A program made the position numbers and the translations under genes. A DNA stretch of 64,000 nucleotides from contig JAKOVQ010000003.1 of the NCBI GenBank assembly GCA_029781975.1, positions 62,001 through 126,000 of the forward strand. Reading direction: 5' to 3'. The notes under the pieces are model-generated. The model ran no database searches, was not told where the DNA came from, and saw only the letters and a program-made list of their open reading frames with translations. Positions 1 to 50,327 of this stretch are shown here, piece after piece. How positions within the stretch are numbered: the first letter of the stretch is position 1; the number at the start of each line of letters is the position of its first letter. Source of the DNA: Acidobacteriota bacterium (GTDB lineage: Bacteria; Acidobacteriota; Thermoanaerobaculia; UBA5066).

Positions 1-1886
1 CCGAGGCCCCCTGGATCCTCGACGTCGTGATCGCCCTCCTCTGGGTCGTCTTCGCGGTCAACTTCTTCGGGACGATCGCGATCCGGCGCGAGAAGCACCT
101 CTACGTCGCGATCTGGTTCTACATCGCGTCCATCGTCGCCGTCGCCATCCTCCACATCGGGAACAGCATGGCGATGCCCTACTCCTGGCTCGGGAGCTAC
201 TCGGCCTACTCGGGGGTCAAGGACGCCCTGATGCAGTGGTGGTACGGGCACAACGCCGTCGCGTTCTTCCTGACGACGCCGTACCTCGGCCTCATGTACT
301 ACTACCTGCCGAAGGCGGCGGAGCGCCCGGTCTTCAGCTACCGGCTGTCGATCATGCACTTCTGGTCGCTCGTCTTCGTCTACATCTGGGCCGGCCCGCA
401 CCACCTCCACTACTCGGCCGTCCCCGAGTGGGCCTCGACGCTCGGGATGCTCTTCTCGCTCATCCTCTGGATGCCCTCCTGGGGGGGGATGGTCAACGGC
501 CTCCTGACGCTCCGGGGCGCGTGGAACAAGCTGCGCGAGGACCCGATCCTGAAGTTCATGGTCGTCGCCGTGACCTACTACGGCATGTCGACGTTCGAGG
601 GCCCGATGATGTCCATCAAGTCGGTGAACGCGGTCTCGCACTTCACCGACTGGACGATCGGCCACGTCCACGCGGGGGCCCTCGGCTGGAACGCGTTCCT
701 CTCGTTCGGGATCCTCTACTGGATCGTCCCGAGGCTCTGGAAGACCGAGCTCTACTCCAGGCGGCTCGCGACCGCCCACTTCTGGATCGGCACGATCGGC
801 CTGATCCTCTACCAGGTCTCGATGTGGGTCGCCGGCATCACCCAGTGGGCGATGTGGCGCGCCTTCGAGCCGGACGGGCGGCTCACCTACCCCGACTTCA
901 TCGAGACCGTAACCAGGATCGTCCCGCTCTACTGGGTCCGCCTCGTCGCGGCGATCTTCTTCTTCACCGGCGTCGTTCTCCTGGTCTGGAACGTCTTCAA
1001 GACGATCCGGAAGGCCCCGGCGGGCTTCGACGAGGAGCCGGAGGTGAAGGCGCCGCCGCTCGTGGCCGACCTGTCGGCCCCCGGGGCGACGACCGGTCCG
1101 GACACCTACGACTACGCCTTCTACCGGTTCCAGCACGCCCTGCGGCACGGCTTCCACCGGATCCTCGAGGGACGCACGGTCACCTTCACGGTCCTCACCA
1201 CGCTCGCGCTCGCCGTCGGCTCCCTCGTCGAGGCGATCCCGATGTTCTTCGACAGGGACAACGTGAAGGAGATCGCGAGCGTCAAGCCCTACACGCCGCT
1301 CGAGGTCCTCGGCAGGGACATCTACACGCGCGAAGGGTGCTACCTCTGCCACTCGCAGCTCGTCCGGCCCTTCCGCTACGAGACCGAGCGGTACGGGGAG
1401 TACTCGAAGGCCGGCGAGTACATCTACGACCACCCCTTCCAGTGGGGCTCGAAGCGGACCGGACCGGACCTCCACCGCGTCGGCGGCAAGTACCCCTCGC
1501 TCTGGCACGTCCGCCACATCCAGAACCCCCGCTCGACGACGCCGGGCTCGGTCATGCCCCGGTACACCCACATCCTGACGTCGACGCTCGACGCGCGCGA
1601 GATCGGCGCGAAGATGCGCGCCCTCCGGGCCGTCGGCGTTCCCTACACCGACGGCGAGATCGAGGGCGCCCCGGCCGCCATCGAGGCCCAGGCGAAGGCC
1701 ATCGCCGCGGAGGTCGAGGCCCAGCGCGGGCCGAGGGGGCTCGCCGACAAGGAGATCGTGGCGCTGACCGCGTACCTCCAGCGGCTCGGGACCGACATCA
1801 GGTGGAAGCCGGTCGCGCCGCAGGAGCCGCTCGCCCCGGCTCCTCCTCCGGCCCCGGCGGCCCCCGCCGTCGCGGCCGCGAGGTAG
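1..1886 (+). CDS. ccoNO: cbb3-type cytochrome c oxidase, fused CcoN-CcoO (5' end outside window)
   Basis: Terminal oxidase reducing O2 at the inner membrane; the fusion joins the catalytic haem b/b3-CuB subunit to the monohaem c subunit. The frame is open to the left edge, so the start lies outside. About 130 N-terminal residues of CcoN appear to be missing. Visible CcoN signatures are WWYGHNAVAF (a CuB ligand His), AGPHHLHY (the His pair of CuB) and GHVHAGALGWN (haem ligands), within several membrane spans. After a linker near visible residue 350 a CcoO segment begins, with one membrane anchor and a haem c site CYLCH at visible residues 438-442, then SVMPRY as likely Met ligand. The Ala/Pro-rich tail is low complexity. 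ccoQ and ccoP follow closely. CcoNO fusions are known from several phyla, so the fusion is unlikely to be an assembly error. Confidence 0.95.
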   Translation, partial: EAPWILDVVIALLWVVFAVNFFGTIAIRREKHLYVAIWFYIASIVAVAILHIGNSMAMPYSWLGSYSAYSGVKDALMQWWYGHNAVAFFLTTPYLGLMYYYLPKAAERPVFSYRLSIMHFWSLVFVYIWAGPHHLHYSAVPEWASTLGMLFSLILWMPSWGGMVNGLLTLRGAWNKLREDPILKFMVVAVTYYGMSTFEGPMMSIKSVNAVSHFTDWTIGHVHAGALGWNAFLSFGILYWIVPRLWKTELYSRRLATAHFWIGTIGLILYQVSMWVAGITQWAMWRAFEPDGRLTYPDFIETVTRIVPLYWVRLVAAIFFFTGVVLLVWNVFKTIRKAPAGFDEEPEVKAPPLVADLSAPGATTGPDTYDYAFYRFQHALRHGFHRILEGRTVTFTVLTTLALAVGSLVEAIPMFFDRDNVKEIASVKPYTPLEVLGRDIYTREGCYLCHSQLVRPFRYETERYGEYSKAGEYIYDHPFQWGSKRTGPDLHRVGGKYPSLWHVRHIQNPRSTTPGSVMPRYTHILTSTLDAREIGAKMRALRAVGVPYTDGEIEGAPAAIEAQAKAIAAEVEAQRGPRGLADKEIVALTAYLQRLGTDIRWKPVAPQEPLAPAPPPAPAAPAVAAAR

Positions 1887-1912
1887 CGAGGGAGCGAGGG
1901 AGCGAGGGAGCG
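1886..1912 (+). repeat. 8-nt tandem repeat supplying the ccoQ ribosome binding site
   Basis: Between the ccoNO stop and the ccoQ ATG the unit agggagcg occurs three times in direct tandem. Each copy contains a GGGAG Shine-Dalgarno core, and the last is about 5 nt from the start codon. The repeat could vary in copy number by slippage. Confidence 0.7.
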
Positions 1913-2113
1913 ATGCTCCAGGAGCTCGCCGCACGGACCGGAGCGGGCGCGTGGGCGATCGCTTCGATGCTCTTCTTCCTGGCGGTCTGGGTCTTCATCG
2001 CGGTGCGCGTCGTCAGGGCCCGCCGGGAGGACCTCGACGCCCGGGCCCGCCTCCCCCTCGAGGAGGACGGCGGACCCGGCGATGACCCTCCGGGCGCCCG
2101 CCCGAGAGGCTGA
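1913..2113 (+). CDS. ccoQ: CcoQ/FixQ-like small cbb3 subunit
   Basis: A 66-residue protein between ccoNO and ccoP, the usual place of CcoQ, which stabilises the cbb3 complex. It has one hydrophobic span at about residues 14-32 (WAIASMLFFLAVWVFIAVRVV), then a charged cytoplasmic tail rich in Arg, Asp and Glu, the CcoQ layout. The ATG at 1913 follows the tandem GGGAG repeat. The stop is 12 nt before ccoP. Sequence conservation in CcoQ is weak, so the call rests on position, size and topology. Confidence 0.75.
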   Translation: MLQELAARTGAGAWAIASMLFFLAVWVFIAVRVVRARREDLDARARLPLEEDGGPGDDPPGARPRG

Positions 2114-2125
2114 CGAGAGGGGACC

Positions 2126-2713
2126 ATGGCACAGTTCGAGGACAAGGTTCTTCACGAGCTCGACGGGATCAAGGAATACGACAACCCCATGCCCGGCTGG
2201 CTCATGGCCATCTGGTGGGGCTCGCTGATCTTCGCCGCCGCCTACCTCGTCTTCTACGCGCTGAGCTTCGGCGAGGGCTCGATGGAGGCGGAGTACCGGG
2301 CCGAGGCGCAGCGGTCGACCGCCTCCGTCCAGGCGTACTTCGACGCGCACCCGATCGTCCCGCCGAAGGCCGCCGACCTCCTCGCCGGGGCGGCGAACCC
2401 GGCCGTGCTCGAGATGGGGGCCGCCCGGTTCGCGAAGACCTGCGCCCCCTGCCACGGCGCCCAGGCCCAGGGGCTCATCGGTCCGAACCTCACCGACGAC
2501 CGGTGGATCCACGGCGGACAGGTGGAGCAGATCTTCCAGACCGTCGCGAAGGGCTGGCCGGCGAAGGGGATGCCGCCCTGGGGCCGCGCCCTGAGGCCCG
2601 AGGAGCTCTCCGCGCTCGTCTCGTACGTGCGGAGCCTCCAGGGGTCGCACCCGCCGAACGCCAAGCCCCCGGAGGGCGACCCCGTCACGCCCGAGCCGAT
2701 CCCGGGAAGCTGA
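2126..2713 (+). CDS. ccoP: cbb3 oxidase subunit III (CcoP), single-haem form
   Basis: Membrane-anchored cytochrome c passing electrons to CcoNO. 195 residues: an N-terminal motif typical of CcoP (EYDNPMPGWL, residues 17-26), one membrane span at about 27-47, then one cytochrome c domain with CAPCH at 106-110 and a distal Met in GMPPWG near 148-153. Canonical CcoP is about 300 residues with two haem c sites; here only one CxxCH is present, so one cytochrome domain is absent. The gene ends 1 nt before the GTG of ccoG. The Pro-rich C-terminus looks intact, so this is a short natural form rather than a broken gene. Confidence 0.9.
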   Translation: MAQFEDKVLHELDGIKEYDNPMPGWLMAIWWGSLIFAAAYLVFYALSFGEGSMEAEYRAEAQRSTASVQAYFDAHPIVPPKAADLLAGAANPAVLEMGAARFAKTCAPCHGAQAQGLIGPNLTDDRWIHGGQVEQIFQTVAKGWPAKGMPPWGRALRPEELSALVSYVRSLQGSHPPNAKPPEGDPVTPEPIPGS

Positions 2714-2714
2714 C

Positions 2715-4223
2715 GTGACGAACGCCGTCGCGGAGCCGCCCCGCGCGCCGGAGCCCGAGCAGGGGGCCGCGGCCCCGGCCGGGGGCCTGCCGGTCCTCGA
2801 CCGCGTCTTCGACGTCGCCCCCGAGGAGGAGCTCCTCTACAGCATCTCGGCCGACGGGAAGCGGAAGTTCATGCACCCGATCGTCCACAAGGGGCGGCAC
2901 TGGAAGGTCCGCCGGGCGATCGCCTACGCGCTCTACGCCCTCTTCTTCGCGCTCCCGCTGGTCCCCGTCGGGGGCTCCCCGGCCGTCTTCCTCGACCTCG
3001 ACGCGCGGCGGTTCCACGTCCTGGGCACCACCTTCCACGCGACGGACAACCTCCTCCTCGCCGCCTTCGGGCTCGGCGCCATCGTGACGGTCTTCTTCGT
3101 CGGCTCGACGTTCGGGCGGATGTGGTGCGGCTACGCCTGCCCCCAGACCGTCTACCTCGAGTTCCTCTTCCGCCCGGTCGAGGCCTTCCTCGAAGGGGGA
3201 CCGCTGAGGCAGCGGAAGCTGAACGCCGCTCCCTGGAGCCGCCGGAAGGTCGCCATCAAGGTGGCGAAGTGGTCGATCTGGACGGTCGTCGCCCTCCTGA
3301 TGGCCTCGACCTTCGTCGCCTACTTCGTCAGCTGGAAGGCCCTCGTCGCGGGCCTCTTGCACGACCCGTTCGCGATGAAGGGGGCGCTCTTCACGACGGC
3401 CCTCCTCACGGGGGCCATCCTCTTCGACTTCGGCTGGTTCCGCGACCAGATGTGCACGATCGCGTGCCCCTACGGACGGCTCCAGAACGTCATGGCCGAC
3501 CAGGACACGATCCTCGTCGCCTACGACGCGCCGCGCGGCGACCCGAAGGTGAAGGTGAAGGACCGCGTCGCCGGCGTCCCGGCGGGGGACTGCATCGACT
3601 GCCGGAGCTGCGTGAACGCCTGCCCGACGGGTACCGACATCCGTCGCGGCCTGCAGCCCGAGTGCATCGGGACCGCCCAGTGCGTCGACGCGTGCGACGA
3701 GGTGATGATCGGGCAGAAGAAGCCGATCGGCCTCATCAAGTACACGTCCGAGCGCGAGCAGAAGGGGGGCGTCCGCCGCGTCCTCCGCCCGCGGAACGTC
3801 GCGTACCTCGTCCTCCTCGCGATCGCCTGGGGGACGCTCGCCGCCCTCGTCCTGACGCGGGGAGACGCCCAGATCGAGGTGGTCCGCGGGGGGCGCGAGC
3901 CGTACCGGCTCCTCCCGAACGGGCAGGTCGCGAACCAGCAGCGCGTGAGGATCACGAACCAGCTCGCCGAGACGCAGCGGTTCACGATCGAGGTGCTGAG
4001 CCCGAAGGGGGCGAGCCTCGTCGTGAGCGAGTCCCCCGTGACCGTCGCGCCCTCGGGCCTCGTCACGGTGGACGTCGTGACGACGGTGCCGCCGGCCGTC
4101 TTCGTGGACGGGCAGATCCCCGTCCGTTACCTGGTCCGCTCCGACAAGGGCTTCCGCAAGGAGGTCGGGTTCCTCCTCCTCGGGCCGTTCAACGACGCCG
4201 GGCCGGACGGAGGGACGCCGTGA
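2715..4223 (+). CDS. ccoG: Cytochrome c oxidase accessory protein CcoG (RdxA/FixG)
   Basis: A membrane iron-sulphur protein of cbb3 biogenesis; the family is described as a Cu(II) reductase supplying Cu(I) for the CuB site. 502 residues with several N-terminal membrane spans, the GYACPQTVY segment near residue 138, a second Cys pair in CTIACPYGRLQ, and a ferredoxin-like pair of clusters in CIDCRSCVNACPTG and CIGTAQCVDACDE at about 293-330. A further membrane span and a periplasmic Ig-like C-terminal domain (about 400-490) follow, the full family layout. The GTG start at 2715 directly follows the ccoP stop. The stop overlaps the ccoH GTG, consistent with coupling. Confidence 0.95.
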   Translation: MTNAVAEPPRAPEPEQGAAAPAGGLPVLDRVFDVAPEEELLYSISADGKRKFMHPIVHKGRHWKVRRAIAYALYALFFALPLVPVGGSPAVFLDLDARRFHVLGTTFHATDNLLLAAFGLGAIVTVFFVGSTFGRMWCGYACPQTVYLEFLFRPVEAFLEGGPLRQRKLNAAPWSRRKVAIKVAKWSIWTVVALLMASTFVAYFVSWKALVAGLLHDPFAMKGALFTTALLTGAILFDFGWFRDQMCTIACPYGRLQNVMADQDTILVAYDAPRGDPKVKVKDRVAGVPAGDCIDCRSCVNACPTGTDIRRGLQPECIGTAQCVDACDEVMIGQKKPIGLIKYTSEREQKGGVRRVLRPRNVAYLVLLAIAWGTLAALVLTRGDAQIEVVRGGREPYRLLPNGQVANQQRVRITNQLAETQRFTIEVLSPKGASLVVSESPVTVAPSGLVTVDVVTTVPPAVFVDGQIPVRYLVRSDKGFRKEVGFLLLGPFNDAGPDGGTP

Positions 4224-7261: not shown

Positions 7262-7525
7262 GTGGAGACGATCTTCGTCCTCCTGCCCCTCGCGCTCCTC
7301 ATCGCGGCCATCGCGGTCGGGCTCTTCATCTGGGCCGCGAGGACCGGGCAGTTCGACGACCTGGAGACCCCCGCCGTGAGGATCCTCTTCGACGACGAGG
7401 AGCCGCGCCGCCCGCTGGCGGCGCGCACCTCCGCCCCTGGCGCGGGAGCGGCGGCCGGGGCGACCCCCGGGACGACGCCCCGACAGACGACGAAAGCCGA
7501 TTCGACAAGGAGGGCCCCCGAATGA
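7262..7525 (+). CDS. ccoS: CcoS/FixS cbb3 maturation protein
   Basis: 87 residues, starting with a GTG one base after the ccoI stop. Residues 4-26 form the single membrane span, followed by the CcoS signature (WAARTGQFDDLETPAVRIL), in which the Gly-Gln-Phe-Asp-Asp-Leu run and the acidic end (FDDEE) are conserved in the family. Family members are usually 45-65 residues; here an extra Ala/Gly/Thr-rich tail of about 35 residues follows. CcoS is needed for cofactor insertion into CcoN. Its stop overlaps the ATG of the pentahaem gene (ATGA), tying oxidase maturation directly to alternative complex III. Confidence 0.9.
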   Translation: METIFVLLPLALLIAAIAVGLFIWAARTGQFDDLETPAVRILFDDEEPRRPLAARTSAPGAGAAAGATPGTTPRQTTKADSTRRAPE

Positions 7526-8145
7526 ACGGAAGGAGAATGCCCGTCCGCATCCTGTCGCTCCTTTTGGCGGCGGGCCTGGCGGGCTCCCTCGCGTACGGGC
7601 TCAGCAACGCGCGCAAGGGCTACGAGCCACGCCAGCCCATCCTGTTCCGCCACACGCGGATGGCGGGCGTCCCCGTCTGGCAGAAGGACGCGAAGGGCGA
7701 GATGGTGAACGTCGGGGGCTTCGGCATCCCGTGCGTCTACTGCCACACGATGGCCTACAAGGGGCGCCACTCCACCGTCCCGTCCACGGCCGTCTGCATG
7801 AACTGCCACACGAGCGTGGGCCTGAACAAGGAGTGGGTCCTGAAGATGAAGGAGTACTGGGACCGCGGCGAGCCGATCCCGTGGGTGAAGGTCCACGACC
7901 TCCCCGACTTCGTCTACTACGACCACTCGGCCCACCTGAACGCGAAGGACGAGAAGGGCGAGCCGAAGATCCCCGTGAAGGACGCGGAGGGGAGGCGGAT
8001 CAACCCGTGCGAGGCCTGCCACGGGAAGGTCGAGCAGGAGGAGATCGTCCGGGTGCAGGTGAACTTCAACATGCAGTGGTGCCTCGACTGTCACCGGAAG
8101 CCCGAGATGAAGGCGCCCACCGATTGCGTCGCGTGTCATCGGTGA
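7522..8145 (+). CDS. actA: Alternative complex III subunit ActA, pentahaem cytochrome c
   Basis: Membrane-anchored periplasmic electron carrier of the quinol:cytochrome c (or direct oxidase) oxidoreductase ACIII. 207 residues: an N-terminal hydrophobic anchor at about 8-26, then five CxxCH sites at residues 71 (CVYCH), 92 (CMNCH), 163 (CEACH), 187 (CLDCH) and 202 (CVACH), the number expected for ActA. The spacing, with two N-terminal sites, a long gap carrying a PDFVYYDHSAH His segment, then three close sites, matches the family. The start overlaps the ccoS stop; ActB begins 11 nt downstream. Confidence 0.95.
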   Translation: MNGRRMPVRILSLLLAAGLAGSLAYGLSNARKGYEPRQPILFRHTRMAGVPVWQKDAKGEMVNVGGFGIPCVYCHTMAYKGRHSTVPSTAVCMNCHTSVGLNKEWVLKMKEYWDRGEPIPWVKVHDLPDFVYYDHSAHLNAKDEKGEPKIPVKDAEGRRINPCEACHGKVEQEEIVRVQVNFNMQWCLDCHRKPEMKAPTDCVACHR

Positions 8146-8156
8146 GGGGGAAGACG

Positions 8157-11100
8157 ATGAATCCGAACGAGACCAGCGCGCGCCCCGAGCTCTCCGCCGT
8201 CGACCGGCGCGAGTTCCTCAGGCTGAGCGGGACCCTGGCGGCCGCCGCGGCGCTCGCCTCCGCGGGCTGCCAGCCGCCGCAGGAGGCGACGATCCCGTTC
8301 CACGACATGCCGGAGAGCCTCGTGGACGGCCTGGGCCCGGCGCGCTTCTTCCACACGGTCCTCGACGGGTCCCCCGTCCTCGTGAAGACCCGCGAGGGGC
8401 GCCCGATCCTCCTCGCCCCGAGCCCGAACGACGGGAGCGGGCGCGGCCTCACGCTCCGCCACCACGCGGCGCTCATGGACCTCTACGACCCCGACCGCGC
8501 GCGCGGGCCTCTCTCCGTCCGCCGCGGCACGGGGGCGCCCGTCGCGTCGAGCTGGAGCGCGGTCGCCTCCGACGTCGCCTCGAGGCTGAAGGCGGCCGGC
8601 AGGAAGGCGGTCCTCCTCAGGGGGCCCGCCTCCGGCCCCGCGCTGGGGGCCGCCGTCGCGGCGCTCTCGGAGAGGAGCGGCCTGAGGGAGGTGGTCTGGT
8701 CGCCCCTCGGGTCCGACGCGGCCCGCGAGGCGTGGACGCGGGCCTTCGGGAGCGGAAGGGTCGCGCGGCCCCGGCTCGACAGGGCCGACCTGGTCGTCGG
8801 CCTCGGCTCCGAGTTCCTCGACAGGCCCGGCGACGGCCTCGAGAAGGACTTCGCCGCCCGCCGCTCCCCCGACCCGGCGGACGGCCGGGGGATGAGCCGG
8901 TTCGTCCAGCTCGAGGGGCGGCTCACGCTGACCGGCGCGAACGCCGACCGGCGGATCCGGGTCCGCGACTCTCAGCTCGCGGCCGTCGCCGCCGCCCTCG
9001 CGCACGAGCTCGTCGTCGTCCGGAAGGTCGGCCCTCTCGCCGCCGACGCCGCGGTCGCCCGGGCGCTCGCTCCCTACGCGGCCGACGTCGTGGCGAGGCA
9101 GGCGGGCGTCCCGGCGTCCGTCCTCACGGGGCTCGCGGCGGAGCTCGCCGCCGCCTCCGGGAGGGCGGTCGTCGTCGCGGGCGGCTCCGCGAGCAGCGCG
9201 CCTTCCGGCCCGGCCCTCGAGGCCGCCGCGCTCCTCCTCAACCTCGCGATCGGAGCCTTCGACGCGGGCCTCCTCGACCGGACCGACGCGGAGGAGCCGT
9301 ACGCGGGGGGAGGCGCCGCGCTCGCGGCGCTCGCCGAAGAGATGCGGGCGGGGAAGGTCGAGCTGCTCCTCGTGGCCGGCGTGAACCCAGTCTACGACGC
9401 GCCCGTCTCGCTGAACTTCGCCGAGGCGCTCGCGAAGATCCCCTGGGTCGTCTCCCTCAACGACCGGCTCGACGAGACGAGCCTCCTCGCCGACGTCCTC
9501 GCCCCCGCGAGCCACCCGCTCGAGTGCTGGGGGGACGTCTCTCTCCCCCGAGGGTTCGTGGCGATCCAGCAGCCCGTCATCCAGCCCCTCTTCGACACGC
9601 GGGGCCTCCTCGACCTCCTCGTCGACTGGGGAGCCGCCGTCGACGACCCGGCGGCCGTGGCCGCGGTGGCCGCCGCACGGGCCGCCCTGGCGAAGCCGCC
9701 GCTCCCCGCGTCGGCCGCGCCGCCGCCGAGCCCGAGCGTCGCCTGGCACTACCTGCGCGCGGCGTGGGCCACGCGCCTCGGGCACGAGGCCGGGACCCCG
9801 GCCTTCGACGCGGCGTGGAACGAGGTCCTCCGCTCCGGCTCCTGGCAGGGACCCGCCCCGGCGGCCGTCGGGACCGGGCTCGCCCCCGCCGCGCTCGCGC
9901 TCCTCGCCGGGCTCCCCCCCGCGCCGTCCGGCCTGGAGCTCCAGCTCTATCCCCCCATCGCCCTCGCGGACGGGCGCGCGGGGAACAATGGCTGGCTCCA
10001 CGAGCTCCCCGACCCGATCACCCGCATCACCTGGGGCGGCGCGCTCTCGATCGCGCCGCGCCGGTTCGACGAGATGAAGCTCCGGAACGGCGACCTCGTC
10101 GAGGTCGACGCCGGGCACGCGAAGGTCGTCGCGCCGGCCTACCGCCACGCGGGGATGCACGACGACGAGGTCGCCCTGCCGCTCGGCCTCGGCCGGACGG
10201 CGTGCGGCGCGATCGGCGCGGGCGTCGGCCCGAACGCCTTCCCGCTCCGGCTCCTCGCGGACGGACGCGTCCTCGCGGCCGGCCTGCCGGTCACGATCCG
10301 GAAGCTCTCCGGGAACGAGCCCCTCGCCCTGGCGCAGGGCTCCGACGTGATCGACCGCGACCGCCGCCCCCTCGTCCCGGTGACCACCCTCACCGCGTAC
10401 GAGAAGGACGCGAAGGCCGGGACGGAGCAGGTCGAGGGCGGCCCCTCCATCTGGCCTTCGCACCCGTACCCGAACGCCCGCTGGGCGATGGCGATCGACC
10501 TGAGCAGGTGCAACGGCTGCGGCAAGTGCGTGATCGGCTGCCAGGCCGAGAACAACGTCCCCGTCGTCGGCCGCCACGGGATCCTCGACGGCCGCGAGAT
10601 GTCGTGGATGCGGGTCGACCGCTACTACGACGCCCCGAAGAAGGACGGCCGCTGGGACGCCGAGGTCTGGGACGGCCCGCTCGAGGTCGTCGAGGAGCCC
10701 CTGACGCTCTTCACGCCGATGCTCTGCCAGCACTGCGAGAACGCCCCGTGCGAGACCGTCTGCCCCTTCGTGGCGACGATGCACAGCGCCGACGGCCTGA
10801 ACCAGCAGGTCTACAACCGCTGCGTCGGCACCCGCTACTGCGCGAACAACTGCCCCTTCAAGGTGCGCCGCTTCAACTTCTGGGAATACGGCAAGAAGCA
10901 GGAGAGCGCGCTGATGCGGGCGCTCGAGCCCCGCATCAAGCGGAACGCCGAGCTGAACACGCGCGTCCCGATGCAGATGAAGAACAACCCGGAGGTGACC
11001 GTGCGGAGCCGGGGCGTGATGGAGAAGTGCTCCTTCTGCATCCAGCGGATCCGCGCCGCGACGTCGGACGCGACGCGCGGGGGGAGGAAGAAGGACCACT

Positions 11101-11294
11101 ACCCCGACGGCGCCGTCGTCCCGGCCTGCATGGAGGCCTGCCCGACGGGGGCCATCACCTTCGGCGACGTGAACGCCCCCGGCGCGAAGGTGGCGGCGCT
11201 CGCCGCGCACCCGCGGGCCATGAAGCTCCTCGAATCCGTCGGCGTGAAGCCGGCGGTCTCCTACCTGACGAAGGTGCGCAATGACAAGGCATGA
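8157..11294 (+). CDS. actB: Alternative complex III subunit ActB, fused molybdopterin-like and Fe-S domains
   Basis: 1045 residues. The N-terminus has a Tat-like motif (RREFLRLSG) and a lipobox-like ASAGC, so it is probably exported folded and lipid-anchored. The first ~750 residues resemble a molybdopterin oxidoreductase fold that in ActB carries no Mo cofactor; the C-terminal third is a 4-cluster ferredoxin-like domain with [12 protein letters not shown] (~785), [14 protein letters not shown] (~858), [12 protein letters not shown] (~889) and CSFCIQR plus CMEACPTG (~958 on). Such fusion is normal for ActB. Start at 8157 was chosen because the Tat signal begins there; upstream sequence in this frame is antisense-like filler overlapping actA. 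The 3' end overlaps actC by 14 nt. Confidence 0.95.
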
Positions 11295-12780
11295 CGCGAG
11301 CCCCTACGCCACGGTGATGGGCGACGGCCAGCTCACCGGGCGGCCGATCGTCCTCGCGGGGGCCGGCCCCTACGGGGGGGACCTCGAGGTCCCCGAGCCC
11401 CTCGTCACCGGCGGGAAGACGTGGGCCGACGTCGACCGCGACATCTGCATGCACGCCGAGCGGTTCCCCACGAGGCGGTGGTGGATCGCGTTCGCCGTCG
11501 CGCTGTCGTTCCTCGGCCTCCTCGTCTTCTCGGTGGGCGTCCTCCTCTACGACGGGATGGGGATCCTCGGGGTCAACCACCCGGTCGGCTGGGGCTCGTT
11601 CATCATCAACTTCGTCTTCTGGATCGGCATCGGGCACGCCGGGACGCTCATCTCGGCGGTCCTCTTCCTGTTCCGGCAGCAGTGGCGGACCGGCATCAAC
11701 CGGGCCGCCGAGGCGATGACGCTCTTCGCCGTCGCCTGCGCCGGGATCTTCCCCGTCCTCCACCTGGGGAGGGCGTGGTTCGCCTACTGGCTCGTCCCCT
11801 ACCCGAACGCGAGGGGCCCGCTCTGGGTCAACTTCAACTCGCCGCTCGCGTGGGACATCTTCGCGATCTCCACCTACGGCCTCGTCTCCCTCGCCTTCTG
11901 GTACGTCGGGCTCCTCCCCGACCTCGCGACCGTCCGCGACCGGGCGACCCACCCGTGGCGCAAGAAGCTCTACAACGCGATGAGCTTCGGCTGGACCGGC
12001 TCCCACCGGATGTGGCGGCACTACGAGTCGGCCTACATGATCCTCGCCGCCCTCGCGACGCCGCTCGTCTTCTCGGTCCACACGATCGTCTCGTTCGACT
12101 TCGCGACGTCCGTCATCCCGGGCTGGCACACGACGATCTTCCCGCCCTACTTCGTCATCGGCGCGATCTTCTCGGGCTTCGCGATGGTCATCACCCTGAT
12201 GACCTTCATGCGCGGCTACTTCGGGATGAAGAACTACATCACGCTGAACCACATGGAGGCGATGGCGAAGATCCTGATGCTGACGGGGATGCTCGTCGGC
12301 TTCGCCTACTCGACCGAGTTCTTCATGGCCTGGTACTCGGGGAGCGAGTGGGAAGGGTTCGTCTTCAGGAACCGCGCGTTCGGCCCGTACGGCTGGGCCT
12401 ACTTCATCATGTTCACCTGCAACGCCATCGTCCCGCAGGTCTTCTGGTGGAAGAAGGCGAGGCGGAATACCTGGGTCCTGTTCGTCGTCTCGATCCTCGT
12501 GAACGTCGGGATGTGGTTCGAGCGGTACGTCATCGTCGTGACGTCGCTCCACCGCGACTTCCTCCCGTCGTCCTGGGGCATGTACGCCCTGACGAGGTGG
12601 GACTACGCGATCCTCCTCGGCTCCTTCGGCCTCTTCTTCACCCTCTTCCTCCTCTTCGTCCGCGTCCTCCCCGTCGTCGCGATCTCGGAGGTCAAGGGCG
12701 TGATGGACCCGAAGGTGGCCCGGAGCGCGCCCGAAGATCCCCCCACCGCTGCCGCCCCCCTGGCGGCCCAGGAGGCCTGA
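11281..12780 (+). CDS. actC: Alternative complex III subunit ActC, NrfD-like quinol-site membrane protein
   Basis: 499 residues with about ten hydrophobic spans, of the NrfD/PsrC type. The N-terminus carries the ACIII-specific leader ([15 protein letters not shown]) before the first span. The family pattern [29 protein letters not shown] is split by membrane spans and includes the His of the proposed quinol/proton site; [15 protein letters not shown] follows. ActC and ActF are the two large membrane subunits; ActC lies beneath ActB. The start ATG lies inside the end of actB (14-nt overlap). Confidence 0.95.
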
Positions 12781-12783
12781 GCC

Positions 12784-13329
12784 ATGATGCCGACCTCGAC
12801 GAAAGGCGTCCTCGGCCACTTCCGCGAGCCGGACGAGGCCCTCGCCGCCGCCGCGAAGGTCCGCGACGCCGGCTGGAAGCACTTCGACTTCCTGACCCCC
12901 TTCCCGATCCACGGCATGGAGGAGGCGATGGGCCAGAGGCGTTCGTGGATCCCGATCGCGACGGCGGTCCTCGCCGCGTGCGGCATCCTCTTCGCGCAGG
13001 GCCTGCAGAACTACGTCATGGTCTGGGACTGGCCGATGAACTTCGGCGGCAAGCCCCACGCCTCCTGGCCCGCCTTCATCCCGATCACGTTCGAGGCGAT
13101 GGTCTTCTGGGCGGCGCTCGGCACCGCGCTCGTCGCGATCGTCGCCGGCAAGAGGGACACGGTCCCGCAGCCGCCGCCGATGGTCGTCGAGACGGGAGCC
13201 ACGGTCGACCGGTTCGTCCTCTGGATCTCGGCGACCGACCCGAAGTGGAACCCCGCCGAGGCCGAGACCTTCGTCCGGTCCCTCGGCGCCCAGGGCGTGA
13301 GGCTCGTCGACGGAGGGGCCGATGCGTAG
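12784..13329 (+). CDS. actD: Alternative complex III subunit ActD (DUF3341)
   Basis: 181 residues. The N-terminal cytoplasmic part has the ferredoxin-like DUF3341 pattern: GVLGHFREPDEALAAAAKVRDAG, then FDFLTPFPIHGMEEAMG, followed by two membrane spans at about 57-77 and 100-122 with the conserved WDWPMNFGGKP loop between them. ActD is a peripheral-plus-membrane ACIII subunit contacting ActC and ActF. It begins 3 nt after actC and overlaps actE by 8 nt. The tail has an unusual extra segment (DRFVLWISATDPKWNPAEAE) resembling part of the usual ActD C-terminus, so the protein looks complete. Confidence 0.9.
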   Translation: MMPTSTKGVLGHFREPDEALAAAAKVRDAGWKHFDFLTPFPIHGMEEAMGQRRSWIPIATAVLAACGILFAQGLQNYVMVWDWPMNFGGKPHASWPAFIPITFEAMVFWAALGTALVAIVAGKRDTVPQPPPMVVETGATVDRFVLWISATDPKWNPAEAETFVRSLGAQGVRLVDGGADA

Positions 13330-13984
13330 CGGCAGCCGGCTCCTCGCCCTCGCGGCGATCGCCTCGACGGTGTCGCTCCTCGCCGGGTGCGACCTCGGCC
13401 TGCCGGCCGGGCGGACGCCCCACCGGGAGGGGAACCGCCTCGACATGGGCGACCAGCCGAAGCTCAAGCCGCAGAGGAAGGACATCTTCCTCGGCCGCCC
13501 GACGGGCCTGATGGCGCCCCAGCCGGGAGCGGTCGCCGTCGGCGAGACCCCCTACCCCTACGCGCAGAACGAGGCCGACAAGGCCGGGGCCGAGCTCGTG
13601 AACCCGCTGAAGCCGACCGCCGACGTCCTCGCGCACGGGAAGTTCGTCTTCGAGAACGTCTGCATCACCTGCCACGGCCCGAAGGGGGCGGGCGACGGCC
13701 ACGTCACCGCCCTCTTCCCGAAGCCCCCGAGCCTGATGACGCAGAAGGTCCGCGACTGGCCCGACGGCCAGCTCTTCCACCGGCCGATGCGCGGCCAGGG
13801 CTCGATGCCGAGCCACGCGCGGCAGGTCGACCAGGCCGACGCCTGGTCCGTGGTGCTCTGGATCCGCGAGATGCAGAAGACGGAGCCCGTCGCGCCGCCG
13901 CCGGCCGTTCCCGCGGCGGTCGCCGCCGCCACCTCCTCCGCCCCCGCTCCACGGGCCGTCCCGGCCGCCGGAGGGAAGCCATGA
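13322..13984 (+). CDS. actE: Alternative complex III subunit ActE, monohaem cytochrome c lipoprotein
   Basis: 220 residues. A signal peptide with lipobox LLAGC (Cys at residue 23) predicts lipid anchoring on the periplasmic face. A cytochrome c domain follows with CITCH at residues 114-118 and a distal Met in GQGSMPSHA. The typical ActE linker (YAQNEADKAGAELVNPL) precedes the haem domain. The last 35 residues are Ala/Pro-rich. ActE is thought to pass electrons from ACIII to the oxidase; with cbb3 genes immediately upstream, CcoP or CcoNO is the natural acceptor. Confidence 0.93.
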   Translation: MRSGSRLLALAAIASTVSLLAGCDLGLPAGRTPHREGNRLDMGDQPKLKPQRKDIFLGRPTGLMAPQPGAVAVGETPYPYAQNEADKAGAELVNPLKPTADVLAHGKFVFENVCITCHGPKGAGDGHVTALFPKPPSLMTQKVRDWPDGQLFHRPMRGQGSMPSHARQVDQADAWSVVLWIREMQKTEPVAPPPAVPAAVAAATSSAPAPRAVPAAGGKP

Positions 13985-45224: not shown

Positions 45225-47258
45225 ATGGCGTTGCTCCAGCGCGGATTCATGTTCGTGATCGCGGCGGGTGCGATGGCGGTCCCGACGCTCATCCCGCAGT
45301 CCCAAGCGCCTCCCGTGGGCGAGAAAGCGAAGGCGAGCGTCCTCGAGCCGAGCCACGTCTCGCCGTACTCGACCGACCAGGTCGAGTACTACCTCACCGA
45401 GGAGCAGATGGACTACGTCCGTCCGGGCCTCAACGTGACGTTCGTCGGCGCCCCCGCGAACTTCGCCCCCGGCCAGAAGCCGACCGTCGAGTTCAAGCTC
45501 ACCGACAACCTCGGCGGGCCGCTCGACCGCCTCGGCATCGACACGCCGGGCGCGATCTCCGTCCGCTGCATCGCGGCCTCGTGGGACGCGACCACGGGCT
45601 ACTACACCGACCTGCTTCAGCCGGCGAACGGCAACCCCGGCGCCGACAGGACCGGGACGCTGACCCAGACCGGGCCGGGCCAGTACAAGTACACGTTCGC
45701 GGGCGCCCTCAACGACTTCGACACGTCCAAGCCGGCGACCATCATGCTGAGCGCCCGCCGGTCCACGACCGACATCGTCGGCAAGGACTACTGGGTCAAC
45801 GCCTACAAGGACTTCCTCCCGACGACCGGGGCCGGCGCGACCACCTACAACATCACGACGAACGCGGCGTGCCTCAACTGCCACGACAGCCTCTCGTTCG
45901 TCGGGACGGGCAACTGGCCTCACGGCGGCAACTACCGCGACGTCAAGACCTGCATGATGTGCCACAACCCGAACAACATGGCGAGCGCGAGCCTTGCCGA
46001 GTTCAACGGGCAGCACTTCTGGCACCTGATCCACTCCGGCCAGTCGGCCGACGTCGGCCCGATCACCTACCCGCAGGACATCCGCAACTGCGATACCTGC
46101 CACGACGCCAAGGCCGCGGGCGGCGGGAGCTGGTACAGCAAGCCCAGCCGCGCGGCCTGCACCGGCTGCCACACCAACGTCGACTTCGCGACGGGCACGA
46201 ACCACGGCCCGGAGAACCTCCCGCAGGCCGACGACAGCAAGTGCGCCAGCTGCCACGCGCCGCAGGGCGACGTGGAGTTCGACGCCTCGATCAAGGGCGC
46301 CCACACCGTCCCCTACAGGAGCACCCAGCTCAAGGGCCTGAAGGCCGAGATCGTCTCCGTCACCTCGGTGGGCGCGGGCAAGAAGCCCGTCGTCACCTTC
46401 AAGATCAGCGACTCGACCGGCGCCCTCGACCCGAAGCCGTTCGGCTCGAACCTGAACGTCCTGATGGGCGGCCCGACGACCGACTACGCGATCGACCCGA
46501 TCCGCCAGCGCGCGGACGGTGCGACGTTCAACGGGACGCTCTGCACCTACACCTTCACCACGGCGATGCCGGACAACGCCAGCGGCACCTGGACGTTCTC
46601 GATCGAGGCGCGCCGCACGGTGGCCCTCAAGAACGCCGACGGGACGACCCAGAACTTCACCGAGGGGGCGATGAACCCCGTCTTCTACGCCTCGGCCGAC
46701 GGGAACTCCGTCGTCGCGCGCCGGACCGTCGTCGACATGGCGGCCTGCAACAAGTGCCACGGGCGCCTCGCGCTCCACGGCGGGCAGCGGCTCAACACGC
46801 AGGAGTGCGTGATGTGCCACAACCCGAACGCGGACGACCACCCGTACCGCAAGCCCGTGGACAACCCGCCGGAGTCGATCTCCTTCCAGCGGATGATCCA
46901 CCGGATCCACACCGGCGAGGAGCTCCACAACGACTTCACGATCATCGGCTTCAACGGGAGCGTGAACAACTACAACGAGGTGACGTTCCCCGGCGACCGC
47001 CGCAACTGCGCGGTCTGCCACGGGACGCCCCGGACGCCCACCTACAACCTGCAGGGCTCCGAGGGGCTCCTGAACGTCAAGACCATGCGCGACTACGTTC
47101 CCGAGGTCGGCCCCGGGACCGCCGCCTGCCTCGGCTGCCACGACGGGCGCGACCAGGCGGCTCACGCCTACCTGATGACCGCTCCGTTCGGCGAGGCCTG
47201 CGCGACCTGCCACGGCGCGAACTCGGATCTCTCTCCCGCCAAGGTCCACGCCAAGTAA
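45225..47258 (+). CDS. mtrC: OmcA/MtrC-family decaheme cytochrome c
   Basis: 677 residues, a candidate cell-surface cytochrome passing electrons to extracellular acceptors. Signal peptide at about 1-25. Ten CxxCH sites start at residues 216, 243, 289, 312, 340, 508, 528, 595, 635 and 659, five in each of two clusters. Each cluster follows a beta-rich domain (about 45-215 and 341-507), the four-domain plan of MtrC/OmcA. Unlike the Shewanella proteins there is no lipobox Cys at the signal-peptide end, so it is probably not lipid-anchored. A strong GGAGGA site precedes the ATG. It heads an operon with decaheme MtrA-like and porin-like MtrB genes. Confidence 0.93.
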   Translation: MALLQRGFMFVIAAGAMAVPTLIPQSQAPPVGEKAKASVLEPSHVSPYSTDQVEYYLTEEQMDYVRPGLNVTFVGAPANFAPGQKPTVEFKLTDNLGGPLDRLGIDTPGAISVRCIAASWDATTGYYTDLLQPANGNPGADRTGTLTQTGPGQYKYTFAGALNDFDTSKPATIMLSARRSTTDIVGKDYWVNAYKDFLPTTGAGATTYNITTNAACLNCHDSLSFVGTGNWPHGGNYRDVKTCMMCHNPNNMASASLAEFNGQHFWHLIHSGQSADVGPITYPQDIRNCDTCHDAKAAGGGSWYSKPSRAACTGCHTNVDFATGTNHGPENLPQADDSKCASCHAPQGDVEFDASIKGAHTVPYRSTQLKGLKAEIVSVTSVGAGKKPVVTFKISDSTGALDPKPFGSNLNVLMGGPTTDYAIDPIRQRADGATFNGTLCTYTFTTAMPDNASGTWTFSIEARRTVALKNADGTTQNFTEGAMNPVFYASADGNSVVARRTVVDMAACNKCHGRLALHGGQRLNTQECVMCHNPNADDHPYRKPVDNPPESISFQRMIHRIHTGEELHNDFTIIGFNGSVNNYNEVTFPGDRRNCAVCHGTPRTPTYNLQGSEGLLNVKTMRDYVPEVGPGTAACLGCHDGRDQAAHAYLMTAPFGEACATCHGANSDLSPAKVHAK

Positions 47259-47279
47259 CCAGACGAGGAGCCAGGCCCT

Positions 47280-47332
47280 CCGGCCCGTGTGGGCCGGGGG
47301 GCCGGGCTGTCCGGGGGCGGCGAAGACCGCCC
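47280..47332 (+). promoter_or_regulatory. Intercistronic hairpins in the mtr operon
   Basis: ccggccc-gtgt-gggccgg (47280-47297) and gggcgg-cgaaga-ccgccc (47315-47332) lie in the 98-nt gap between the first two genes. They have no T tract, so they may mark an RNA-processing or partial-termination point. Confidence 0.4.
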
Positions 47333-47356
47333 GCCTCCGGGGAGAAGGGGACGCAG

Positions 47357-48226
47357 ATGGTGAAAAGACCGCTGGGGCCGACCGCCCTCGCGCTCCTCGT
47401 CGCGCTGGCGTTCTGGCCAGGCCGCATGAAGGCGGCCGACGCCACGTGCGCCGACTGCCACGAGCAGGCGAAGACGTTCTCGGCCAACCCGCACGGCCGC
47501 GCCAAGTGCGACGTGCCCGGCGACGCGGCGTGCGTGAGCTGCCACGGCGACGGCAAGAAGCACATGGAGGAAGGCGGCGACAAGCAATACATCAGAGGCC
47601 TGCACGGCCGGGCGGGCGCCAACGTCTGCCTGACCTGCCACGACGTCACGACCGAGCACGAGTCGTTCCGGGACGGCGCGCACGGCGCCACCGAGACGGT
47701 GAACTGCCTCTCGTGCCACAGCATCCACAGCCCCGCGCCGAGGGCGGCGCACCTCCTGAAGAAGACCCAGCCCGACCTGTGCGCCTCGTGCCACCAGGGC
47801 CAGGCCGCGTCCCTGCGGGACAAGCCCTACAAGCACCACGTCGGGCGCGGGGGGTTCGAGTGCTCCTCGTGCCACGACCCGCACGGGCGGAAGGGCGAGG
47901 GGATGCTCAAGCTCGGACGGGGAGGCGACGGCCCGTGCGTCACCTGCCACACCGAGAAGAGGGGCCCGTTCGTCTTCGAGCACGTCGGCCCCACCGTGGG
48001 CGGGTGCCTCTCGTGCCACACGCCGCACGGCTCGCCGAACCCGAGGCAGCTGATCCGGTCGAACGTGAACCAGCTCTGCCTCGAGTGCCATTCCCAGCTG
48101 GGCGGCTCGTTCCTCGGATCGAGGCCCCCCGCCACCCACAACCAGAACCTCGCCCGCTGGCGGAACTGCACGACGTGCCATACGGCCGTCCACGGCTCCA
48201 ACCAGTCGCAGCAGCTGCTGAAGTAG
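47357..48226 (+). CDS. mtrA: DmsE/MtrA-family periplasmic decaheme cytochrome c
   Basis: 289 residues. A signal peptide ends near residue 26 (RMKAAD), followed by ten CxxCH sites: CADCH (31), CVSCH, CLTCH, CLSCH, CASCH, CSSCH, CVTCH, CLSCH, CLECH and CTTCH. Spacing is regular, with SIHSPAPRAAHLL and CSSCHDPHG segments as in MtrA/DmsE. It should sit inside the barrel of the next gene product and carry electrons across the outer membrane. The preceding spacer (98 nt) contains two hairpins. The ATG at 47357 lies just after GGGGACG, a weak ribosome site. Confidence 0.93.
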   Translation: MVKRPLGPTALALLVALAFWPGRMKAADATCADCHEQAKTFSANPHGRAKCDVPGDAACVSCHGDGKKHMEEGGDKQYIRGLHGRAGANVCLTCHDVTTEHESFRDGAHGATETVNCLSCHSIHSPAPRAAHLLKKTQPDLCASCHQGQAASLRDKPYKHHVGRGGFECSSCHDPHGRKGEGMLKLGRGGDGPCVTCHTEKRGPFVFEHVGPTVGGCLSCHTPHGSPNPRQLIRSNVNQLCLECHSQLGGSFLGSRPPATHNQNLARWRNCTTCHTAVHGSNQSQQLLK

Positions 48227-48236
48227 GAGGAGAGAG

Positions 48237-50189
48237 ATGAGATCCCGCAAGCTCCTCTCCTCGGCCCTCGTCCTCGCGGCGCTCGTCTCCGGCCGGGCCC
48301 TCGCGCAGGACGTCCCCGTCGACCTCGAGATCGGCTACCGCTGGCTCGACGTGACGGGGAACAAGGACATGTACCGGACCCAGGTCAACGAGCGTGACGG
48401 CATCCTCCTGAAGAACCTCACGTTCTCCCTGGGCGACATCCGCAACCCGACCTTCATCGACAGCTTCCGGATCGACGCCGCCGACTTCGGCGCGGGCCCC
48501 TCGGGCTCGGTCAGGCTCGAGGCCGGTCGGACCAGCTTCTGGAAGGCCCGCGTCACCTACCGGCGGGACGAGCTCTTCTCGGCACTCCCGGCCTTCGCGA
48601 ACCCGCTCCTCGACTCGACCGGCGTCATCCCCGGCCAGCACACGGAGGACCGGACGCGCAACATGGTCGACGTCGACGTGGAGATCCTCCCCGGCGGCGT
48701 CATCACCCCGCTCCTCGGCTACACGCTCAACAAGTACGAGGGCCCGGGGCGGACGACCTACCACATCGGCGAGGACGAGTTCCGCCTCGAGCAGGGGCTC
48801 GACGACAAGGACCAGGAGTTCCGCGTCGGCCTCGCCTTCAACGCCGGCCCCGTCTGGGGCCAGGTGACCCAGGGCTGGAGGCAGTACAGCGGGACCGAGA
48901 ACCTCAGCCTCGTCTCCGGGGCCGGTGCCGGGAACAACCCGGGCACGGTCCTCGGCACGCCGGTCACCCTGACGAGCTTCCGGCACTCCACGTCGACCGA
49001 CGTCGACACCCCGGTGACGAACGCCATGGTGGCCTGGAAGGTGATCCCCGCCCTGAAGATCTCCGGCATGTACGTGAGGACGAAGGGCGACAGCGACACC
49101 TCCAGCCGCGAGGACGCCTCCGGCTCGCTCGTCTCCTTCGAGCTCTCGCGGTTCTTCGCGGGCCTCGCGGGGTCGGTCTCCTCGAGCGCGTCCGCGACCT
49201 TCTGGCGCGGCAGCGGCCGCGCCGACATCCACATCGCCGACGGCATCGACGTCACGGCCGGCTACACCAAGCGGAACCGGACGGTCGACGGCTTCGCCCT
49301 CATCTCCGACCTCTACTCGTCGACGACGTCCTGGATCGGGATGGCGCCCGGCGACATCACCGCGATCCTCCAGGCCAACACCTCGCTCGAGCGCGACGAG
49401 AGCATCTTCGACGTCGCCGCCACGGCGAAGGGGCTCGGCCCCATCTCCCTGCGCGCCGGCTGGTCCGAGAACAAGGCGGACATCACGGTCCGCAACGACG
49501 CCTCCGAGGTCGTCGCTTCCGACAACGGGCAGGGCGGCAGCTTCAGCCGCCGCGTCCGCCGGTTCGACGGGTCGGCCTCCATGTCCCTCTCCGTCATCAC
49601 CCTCGGGGTGGACTACCGGCGCGAGAGCGCCGACACCGCGGTCATGAGGACCGACTTCCTCACCCGCGACCGGCTCCGGGTCCGGCTCGGCCTCGACCCG
49701 ACGCCGTGGCTCCACGTCGGCGGGACCGCCGAGGGGACCGACTACGACAACGACGGCGTCGGCTCGGGCTACACCGGCAAGGGCCGGCAGTACGCCGGCG
49801 ACCTCGAGATCGGCCCCGCGGACTTCCTCCGCGGCCGCCTCTCGATCGCCCGCTACGAGTCGAGCTCCGACATCCCCGTCGTCAACCCCTACCCGTACGC
49901 CGTGGTCAACTCCGGCTACGAGGAGAAGGGCGACACGATCGACGGCGGCGTCATGCTCCACGCCGGTCCGGTCCTGCTCGACGCCTCGGTCGGGCGGCTC
50001 GACAACGGCGGCACCTTCCCCTTCACGATGGACCGGGTCCGGGTCCGCGCCGAGTTCCAGGTGCACCCGAAGGTCGGTCTCGTCGGCACGTGGGACAACG
50101 ACAAGTACCGGGAGATGGACCGGTCGTACGGCTCGCTGGCCGACTACGACGGCAACCGCTACGGGTTCTTCATCCGGTTCCGGCAGTAG
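48237..50189 (+). CDS. mtrB: MtrB/PioB-family outer-membrane beta-barrel
   Basis: 650 residues. Signal peptide ends at ALAQ (residues 21-24). The mature part starts DVPVDLEIGYRWLDVTGNKDMYRTQVNERDGILLKNLTF, the usual N-terminus of decaheme-associated barrel proteins, and alternates hydrophobic and polar residues throughout with many Tyr/Trp girdle residues, ending in an aromatic-rich strand (NRYGFFIRFRQ). I see no Cys, so the N-terminal CxxC of Shewanella MtrB is absent, as in PioB-like members. It forms the sheath for the MtrA-like cytochrome. The gene begins 10 nt after mtrA and is followed by a strong terminator. Confidence 0.92.
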   Translation: MRSRKLLSSALVLAALVSGRALAQDVPVDLEIGYRWLDVTGNKDMYRTQVNERDGILLKNLTFSLGDIRNPTFIDSFRIDAADFGAGPSGSVRLEAGRTSFWKARVTYRRDELFSALPAFANPLLDSTGVIPGQHTEDRTRNMVDVDVEILPGGVITPLLGYTLNKYEGPGRTTYHIGEDEFRLEQGLDDKDQEFRVGLAFNAGPVWGQVTQGWRQYSGTENLSLVSGAGAGNNPGTVLGTPVTLTSFRHSTSTDVDTPVTNAMVAWKVIPALKISGMYVRTKGDSDTSSREDASGSLVSFELSRFFAGLAGSVSSSASATFWRGSGRADIHIADGIDVTAGYTKRNRTVDGFALISDLYSSTTSWIGMAPGDITAILQANTSLERDESIFDVAATAKGLGPISLRAGWSENKADITVRNDASEVVASDNGQGGSFSRRVRRFDGSASMSLSVITLGVDYRRESADTAVMRTDFLTRDRLRVRLGLDPTPWLHVGGTAEGTDYDNDGVGSGYTGKGRQYAGDLEIGPADFLRGRLSIARYESSSDIPVVNPYPYAVVNSGYEEKGDTIDGGVMLHAGPVLLDASVGRLDNGGTFPFTMDRVRVRAEFQVHPKVGLVGTWDNDKYREMDRSYGSLADYDGNRYGFFIRFRQ

Positions 50190-50199
50190 CTGAAACGGA

Positions 50200-50227
50200 C
50201 CCGCCGGCGCGCAGGCGCGCCGGCGGG
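50200..50227. repeat. 13-bp perfect palindromic element after mtrB
   Basis: cccgccggcgcgc / gcgcgccggcggg, 13 complementary bases each side with a 2-nt centre. Part of it (gcgcaggcgcgccggc) recurs at 20103-20118. Probable REP-like or terminator-support element. Confidence 0.5.
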
Positions 50228-50243
50228 CCTCAAACTCCGACAA

Positions 50244-50278
50244 GGGCGCCCCGGGTCACCCCGGGGCGCTCGCTTTTT
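50244..50278 (+). terminator. Rho-independent terminator of the mtr operon
   Basis: A 10-bp perfect stem (gcgccccggg / cccggggcgc, loop tcac), extended by two weaker pairs, is followed at once by cgcttttt. Ends transcription after mtrB. Confidence 0.8.
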
Positions 50279-50327
50279 GCCCCTCCCGCCGAGCGTCGCG
50301 GCCGCCGGGGGACGGCCGCGACGGGCT

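What the first reader, a model, noticed from the sequence alone, without database searches (positions are those of the whole stretch)
45225..50189. Complete mtrC-mtrA-mtrB-type extracellular electron transfer operon
Ten-haem surface-type cytochrome, ten-haem periplasmic cytochrome and an outer-membrane barrel follow one another with one terminator, in the same order as Shewanella mtrCAB, in what looks like a non-proteobacterial genome that also encodes alternative complex III and cbb3 oxidase. It suggests metal or electrode respiration, or electron uptake, by this lineage.
Basis: partly seen in the sequence, partly recalled or inferred. Interest (0 to 1): 0.7.

Follow-up and report, generated by a model that had tools for sequence, protein, structure and literature searches.

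The report
Acidobacterial outer-membrane electron conduit operon
A bacterium of the phylum Acidobacteriota carries a complete three-gene set for passing electrons through its outer membrane, built like the well-known Shewanella conduit but with its surface protein lacking the usual lipid anchor and sulfur bridge.

Summary
Window 45225-50189 carries mtrC-like (677 aa, 10 CxxCH), mtrA-like (289 aa, 10 CxxCH) and a cysteine-free barrel (650 aa), followed by one intrinsic terminator. Each cytochrome has ten further invariant histidines, as ten bis-His haems need. C and A pass curated OmcA/MtrC and DmsE cut-offs. The barrel matches no Pfam or NCBIfam model, but its predicted 26-strand fold matches Shewanella MtrB best (6r2q_B, E 6e-15, Z 19.9). 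The host is Acidobacteriota, most likely Thermoanaerobaculia; the barrel is in 38 of 148 genomes of the class, and C, A and B stand together in 17 of 20 loci inspected. Shared flanks in a second genome argue against a chimera.

It is a variant, not a copy: 0 of 25 acidobacterial MtrC homologues have a lipobox or the domain-III CX8-15C pair. Candidate quinol dehydrogenases (NapC/NrfH-like pentahaem; 19- and 13-haem b561 fusions) lie elsewhere in this genome, but NapC-like relatives lie within 10 kb of the barrel in 7 of 30 genomes. Most likely function: electron export to minerals or humics when oxygen is short; uptake is not excluded. Acidobacterial mtr genes are already in print.

The parts
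45225..47258 (+). mtrC-like gene: decahaem OmcA/MtrC-family cytochrome, 677 aa, signal-peptide-like N-terminus without lipobox, no paired cysteines in domain III; the only match over the family cut-off in the genome
   Evidence: TIGR03507 382 bits; MtrF 3pmq E 3.6e-24; MtrC-type structures are the best fold matches
47357..48226 (+). mtrA-like gene: decahaem DmsE/MtrA-family periplasmic cytochrome, 289 aa
   Evidence: TIGR03508 195.1 bits, cut-off 192.2; MtrA chain 6r2q_A E 6.6e-32
48237..50189 (+). mtrB-like gene: outer-membrane barrel, 650 aa, 26 predicted strands, no cysteine
   Evidence: no family hit; model, pLDDT 76; 6r2q_B first
50244..50271 (+). intrinsic terminator-like hairpin (12 pairs) with T5 tail, closing the operon; a second GC-rich hairpin lies just before it (about 50197-50229)
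27..4223 (+). context: cbb3 oxidase genes ccoNO (fusion), ccoP, ccoG
7522..13984 (+). context: alternative complex III genes (pentahaem cytochrome, FeS protein, NrfD-like, ActD, cytochrome c)
   Evidence: ActD 173 bits; the others consistent

Best explanation
The three genes make one trans-outer-membrane electron conduit. The barrel (B) sits in the outer membrane and sheathes the ten-haem A, which reaches from the periplasm into the barrel. The ten-haem C docks on the outer face of A-B and passes electrons to the outside. Electrons most likely come from the quinol pool through a NapC/NrfH-like pentahaem protein and/or membrane-anchored 19- and 13-haem cytochrome-b561 fusions encoded elsewhere in the genome, and leave to Fe(III)/Mn(IV) minerals, humic substances or other cells when oxygen for the cbb3 oxidase is short. 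Shown here: genes, haem motifs, candidate ligand histidines, family membership of C and A, MtrB-like fold of B (predicted), conserved gene grouping, host lineage. Inferred: assembly of the complex, position of C outside the cell, source of electrons, direction of flow, acceptor.
For: C and A pass curated family cut-offs and match solved Mtr cytochromes. The B model has 26 strands and its best match among 350,542 PDB chains is MtrB 6r2q_B (Foldseek E 6.1e-15, next 1.1e-8; VIA Z 19.9 over 537 residues against 17.2 over 355 for the next). All 20 haem-motif histidines plus 10 + 10 further histidines are invariant. C, A and B lie together in 17 of 20 inspected loci (in one of the 17 a pentahaem gene stands between C and A). 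Pairwise distances of A and B correlate at r = 0.93, of C with A at 0.65 and with B at 0.64, over 18 triads. In the class, the NapC-like protein is found in 30 of 38 genomes with the barrel and 39 of 110 without, and lies within 10 kb of it in 7 of 30 genomes with both, 0.17 expected; in L074 the 12-haem, 19-haem and 5-haem genes follow mtrCAB on the same strand. No RuBisCO match.
Against: C has no lipobox, so nothing in its sequence tethers it outside. B has no sequence-level match to MtrB, and TM to 6r2q_B is only 0.63. In this genome the quinol dehydrogenase candidates are on contig C31, not next to the operon on C27. 8 of 38 barrel-bearing genomes show no NapC-like hit and 5 no b561-fusion hit, and 39 and 45 of the 110 others have them without the barrel. 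The association test is not corrected for kinship. No expression or activity data.
Confidence: 0.78

Rival explanations
1. Electron uptake: the same conduit runs inward, oxidising Fe(II), minerals or a partner's electrons and feeding the quinone pool, ACIII and cbb3 (as in Mto/Pio systems).
For: ACIII and cbb3 genes are in the same window; MtrA-family conduits are known in both directions (PMC9671151 and PMC6295460, passages read).
Against: No RuBisCO match in the genome (other carbon-fixation routes not tested). C is an OmcA/MtrC-family protein, while Mto and Pio conduits lack a C subunit (recalled).
Confidence: 0.25
2. DMSO- or other extracellular-enzyme respiration: A is DmsE-like and B DmsF-like, serving an extracellular reductase.
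For: A's best NCBIfam model is the DmsE family.
Against: No molybdenum reductase among the neighbouring genes scanned; the third gene is an OmcA/MtrC cytochrome. The DmsE model also covers MtrA, so it does not separate the two.
Confidence: 0.05
3. C is not part of a fixed complex: without a lipid anchor it is released as an extracellular soluble cytochrome, and A-B alone is the conduit.
For: 0 of 25 C homologues with lipobox; MtrF made without its lipobox is secreted to the medium in Shewanella (PMC6929479, passages). C distances track A and B less well than A tracks B.
Against: C stays next to A and B across families, which suggests a partnership.
Confidence: 0.2

Closest known systems
Shewanella MtrCAB (6r2q; MtrC 6qyc, MtrF 3pmq)
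   Same: Gene order C-A-B, 10 + 10 haems, OmcA/MtrC and DmsE/MtrA families, 26-strand barrel fold, best structure matches for B and C.
   Different: No lipobox and no domain-III CX8-15C pair in C; barrel without cysteine and without sequence-level similarity; no cymA beside it; Acidobacteriota host.
Baker et al. 2022 Group 5 mtrCAB of Acidobacteriia/Bryobacterales (PMC8805035, passages read)
   Same: mtrCAB in the same phylum, no quinone oxidoreductase beside it in this window.
   Different: Group 5 has a periplasmic tetrahaem gene directly downstream of mtrB; here a convergent MacB-type ABC permease gene follows the terminator. Different class. Group 5 sequences were not fetched by name, so no direct alignment was made.
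Thermoanaerobaculum aquaticum MAG mg007 with one MtrC and two MtrA (PMC9671151, passages read)
   Same: Same class by name; an iron-reducing species (as cited there); MtrC and MtrA annotated.
   Different: The passages read give counts only; its sequences were not compared here.
Geobacter porin-cytochrome complex OmbB-OmaB-OmcB
   Same: Barrel plus inner and outer multihaem cytochromes; A also scores 154 bits against the GSU2203 decahaem model, below its 325 cut-off.
   Different: Geobacter Pcc has 8- and 12-haem cytochromes (PMC4245776, abstract as listed); here 10 and 10.
CbcL and NapC/CymA quinol dehydrogenases
   Same: The C31 genes join periplasmic c-haems to a cytochrome b561 domain, or carry a NapC/NirT domain.
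   Different: 19 and 13 c-haems against nine in CbcL (PMC6295460, passages read).

Membership tests
MtrCAB conduit | OmcA/MtrC-family decahaem cytochrome | tested here: met
   TIGR03507 382.1 bits, cut-off 209.3; 3pmq E 3.6e-24
MtrCAB conduit | DmsE/MtrA-family decahaem periplasmic cytochrome | tested here: met
   TIGR03508 195.1 bits, cut-off 192.2, narrowly; 6r2q_A E 6.6e-32
MtrCAB conduit | MtrB-type large barrel by fold | tested here: met
   26 strands in the predicted model; 6r2q_B best match; pLDDT 76, TM 0.63
MtrB/PioB sequence family | match to the MtrB_PioB model PF11854 | tested here: not met
   no Pfam/NCBIfam hit for B; none in the whole genome. Of 10 other barrels of the phylum scanned, one passes the PF11854 cut-off (L062) and one falls below it (L055)
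MtrCAB conduit | neighbouring mtrC, mtrA, mtrB genes | tested here: met
   17 of 20 relatives' loci
Shewanella-type outer-membrane cytochrome (OMMC) | lipobox cysteine for an outer-membrane lipid anchor | tested here: not met
   0 of 25 distinct C homologues including the window's; no Shewanella protein was run through the same script as positive control
Shewanella-type outer-membrane cytochrome (OMMC) | domain-III CX8-15C disulfide (said to be in all OMMCs, PMC4486940 passages) | tested here: not met
   window C has single cysteines 115 and 440 only; 0 of 25 have such a pair in domain III
Gammaproteobacterial MtrB | N-terminal CXXC motif (recalled, no call) | tested here: not met
   B has no cysteine
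MtrCAB conduit | quinol dehydrogenase feeding the conduit (CymA or other) | tested here: inconclusive
   NapC-like and b561 fusions on another contig; linkage in 7 of 30 genomes with both
MtrCAB conduit | electron transfer across the outer membrane | not testable with these tools
   needs bench work
Geobacter OmbB-OmaB-OmcB Pcc | 8-haem inner and 12-haem outer cytochromes | tested here: not met
   10 and 10 CxxCH

The most novel reading that the evidence does not exclude
Acidobacteriota evolved or kept an anchor-free, disulfide-free branch of the Mtr conduit: C is held to the cell only by docking on A-B (or is shed as an extracellular wire), cannot use Shewanella's oxygen-gated flavin switch, and is fed by membrane-anchored 13- to 19-haem b561 proteins whose long haem chains bridge the periplasm directly, making soluble shuttles unnecessary. 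Because the barrel escapes the Pfam and NCBIfam MtrB models, surveys that rely on such models would undercount this branch.
Probability: 0.25. Interest if true: 0.6.

Novelty: new variant of a known kind. Interest (0 to 1): 0.42.

Why it matters
A quarter of the sampled genomes of this class (38 of 148) carry the barrel of this conduit. If it works, iron, manganese or humic respiration is built into a widespread acidobacterial group. The missing anchor and missing disulfide ask directly how a surface cytochrome stays in place and how it avoids reducing oxygen in an organism that also encodes oxygen respiration; both are testable.

Tried and rejected
First whole-genome pattern was written for CxCH instead of CxxCH and its 42 hits were discarded. 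Single-protein search of genome contigs with B found no relatives; the alignment search found 16 loci. PDB sequence searches with B alone and with its alignment gave only hits I read as chance. Plasmid search with C gave no match, so no proteobacterial control set was obtained. A possible inverted repeat about 130 bp upstream of mtrC folds no better than shuffles (z -0.5); the single promoter-like hit lies inside the C gene. Type II secretion (GspD): hits at 174 and 135 bits, below the 351 cut-off, so undecided. The C model is poor in the haem domains (mean pLDDT 59, no haems) and is used only as support for the sequence homology. Chimerism considered and rejected on shared flanks. Origin by transfer from Proteobacteria was not tested, because no proteobacterial sequences could be fetched by name.

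Counting notes: the cut for a 'strong' barrel match was E < 1e-80 (38 genomes); 21 further class genomes had weaker hits (59 in all) and were counted as without. NapC-like and b561-fusion presence was cut at E < 1e-40; weaker hits were counted as absent. Tables were copied by hand into, and coordinates into; one search took the NapC-like gene only. The expected 0.17 assumes a 4.5-Mb genome and a 26-kb target. Many contigs are short, so 7 of 30 is a lower bound. One search used 25 C proteins: the window's and 24 listed by hand from loci L038-L054, L068, L071, L072, L076, L079 and L080; eight named loci whose contigs repeat earlier ones (L067, L069, L073, L074, L077, L078, L081, L082) were left out; L037, L055, L056, L070 and L075 have no whole C. 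One of the 25 (L052) has nine motifs. Start codons are the first after a stop, so some N-termini (L039, L043, L050, L051 and others) are probably too long.
Full report
Observation. Three genes on the + strand were confirmed: C 45225-47258 (677 aa, ten CxxCH), A 47357-48226 (289 aa, ten CxxCH) and B 48237-50189 (650 aa, no cysteine). The gaps are 98 and 10 bp, and a terminator-like hairpin with a T5 tail follows at 50244-50271.

What the parts are. C passes the curated OmcA/MtrC cut-off by far (382 against 209 bits) and A passes the DmsE-family cut-off narrowly (195 against 192). C is the only match over the OmcA/MtrC cut-off in the genome. By sequence C matches MtrF (3pmq, E 3.6e-24) and A matches MtrA (6r2q_A, E 6.6e-32). 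In alignments of 15 C and 10 A proteins all 20 haem-motif histidines are invariant, and exactly ten further histidines are invariant in each, which is the number needed for bis-histidine haems. B matches no Pfam or NCBIfam family and, by my reading, no relevant PDB sequence. Its AlphaFold model, made from the window protein and 16 relatives, has 26 strands with mean pLDDT 76. Its best PDB match is MtrB of the solved Mtr complex: Foldseek E 6.1e-15 against 1.1e-8 for the next, VIA Z 19.9 over 537 residues against 17.2 over 355. TM is only 0.63, so this is the same kind of barrel, not a close copy. The C model is weak in the haem domains (mean pLDDT 59), but its first 15 matches are all MtrC, UndA, OmcA or MtrF chains.

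Host and distribution. The alignment of B found 16 loci in titled genome records, all named as Acidobacteria, Acidobacteriota, Thermoanaerobaculia or Holophagales. A same-class genome (G254, contig of 145,652 bp) corresponds to a record titled Thermoanaerobaculia bacterium (L081), so the window genome is most likely Thermoanaerobaculia. Within the class, B has a strong match in 38 of 148 genomes (E < 1e-80) and any match in 59 of 148; in a sample of the phylum any match in 64 of 297. Of 20 loci fetched with flanks, 17 hold C, A and B together (in L054 a pentahaem gene stands between C and A), one (L037) is cut by the contig end before C, and two (L055, L056) have A and B without C. The genome G176 keeps homologues of window genes on both sides of the operon, which argues against a chimeric contig and for vertical inheritance in the family. 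The window operon and G176 are sisters in the A, B and C trees (support 0.94, 0.97, 0.99), but A and B distances correlate better with each other (0.93) than with C (0.65, 0.64).

Two differences from Shewanella. None of 25 distinct acidobacterial C proteins has a lipobox, and none has the domain-III CX8-15C pair. The 2015 MtrC paper states that all outer-membrane multihaem cytochromes then known have that pair, that it forms a redox-active disulfide, and that its loss harms aerobic growth in Shewanella (PMC4486940, passages). Lipobox-less MtrF is secreted into the medium by Shewanella (PMC6929479, passages). So C here must be held by docking, or is shed; and any protection from oxygen must work otherwise. 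No Shewanella sequence was run through my script as a positive control.

Electron source. The genome has on contig C31 a NapC/NrfH-like pentahaem protein (483 aa) and two fusions of many c-haems with a cytochrome b561 domain (990 aa with 19 haems, 747 aa with 13). They are not next to the operon in this genome. In relatives they can be: in L074 (the contig of G278) a 12-haem, a 19-haem and a 5-haem gene follow mtrCAB on the same strand. Over the class, NapC-like relatives are in 30 of 38 genomes with strong B and 39 of 110 without; b561 fusions in 33 of 38 and 45 of 110 (Fisher 4e-6 and 6e-7, not corrected for kinship). NapC-like genes lie within 10 kb of B in 7 of 30 genomes with both, against 0.17 expected. 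This supports, but does not prove, that they feed the conduit.

Direction. No RuBisCO match was found and the organism encodes aerobic oxidases, so I favour electron export to solids when oxygen is short. Uptake is not excluded; other carbon-fixation routes were not tested.

What is known. [quoted passage not shown] Porin-cytochrome sets in acidobacterial genomes are also reported (PMC13264449, PMC7399161, passages). My searches for Thermoanaerobaculia with extracellular electron transfer or multihaem cytochromes, MtrC with lipobox and MtrC with Acidobacteriota listed no paper that by title or abstract treats the missing lipobox or disulfide in this group; only openly licensed papers are held. 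I therefore call it a new variant of a known kind: it works like MtrCAB and its cytochromes belong to the named families, but it is not a Shewanella-type outer-membrane cytochrome system.

Noticed in passing
L057 10330-19833 (own genome contig C31): NapC/NrfH-like pentahaem protein, and 19-haem and 13-haem cytochrome-b561 fusion proteins, with more c-haems than CbcL; possible periplasm-bridging quinol dehydrogenases.
   Followed up: partly
L045 and L046 (genome G042): One genome carries two separate mtrCAB operons.
   Followed up: no
L052 4400-6661: C homologue with nine instead of ten CxxCH motifs and a CX3C pair shortly before the first haem motif.
   Followed up: no
L053 5129-7141 and 10217-12226: A second C gene lies beyond B, so this locus has C on both sides of A-B.
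   Followed up: no
L044 3811-6595: A second, distant A-B-like pair lies upstream of the mtrCAB operon in the same locus.
   Followed up: no
window 44527-44901 (-): Small 2Fe-2S ferredoxin-like protein next to the operon, divergent from mtrC (below the family cut-offs).
   Followed up: no
L061 9032-10663 (own genome contig C4): Octahaem protein with a sub-threshold match to hydrazine dehydrogenase and a match to PF13447; possible hydroxylamine-oxidoreductase relative.
   Followed up: no
L060 8736-11778 (own genome contig C15): MauG/MbnH-like dihaem enzyme beside a QrcA-like pentahaem cytochrome.
   Followed up: no
window 50190-50285: Two strong GC-rich hairpins in a row between the convergent mtrB and ABC-permease genes; the second has the T-run on the + strand.
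   Followed up: partly
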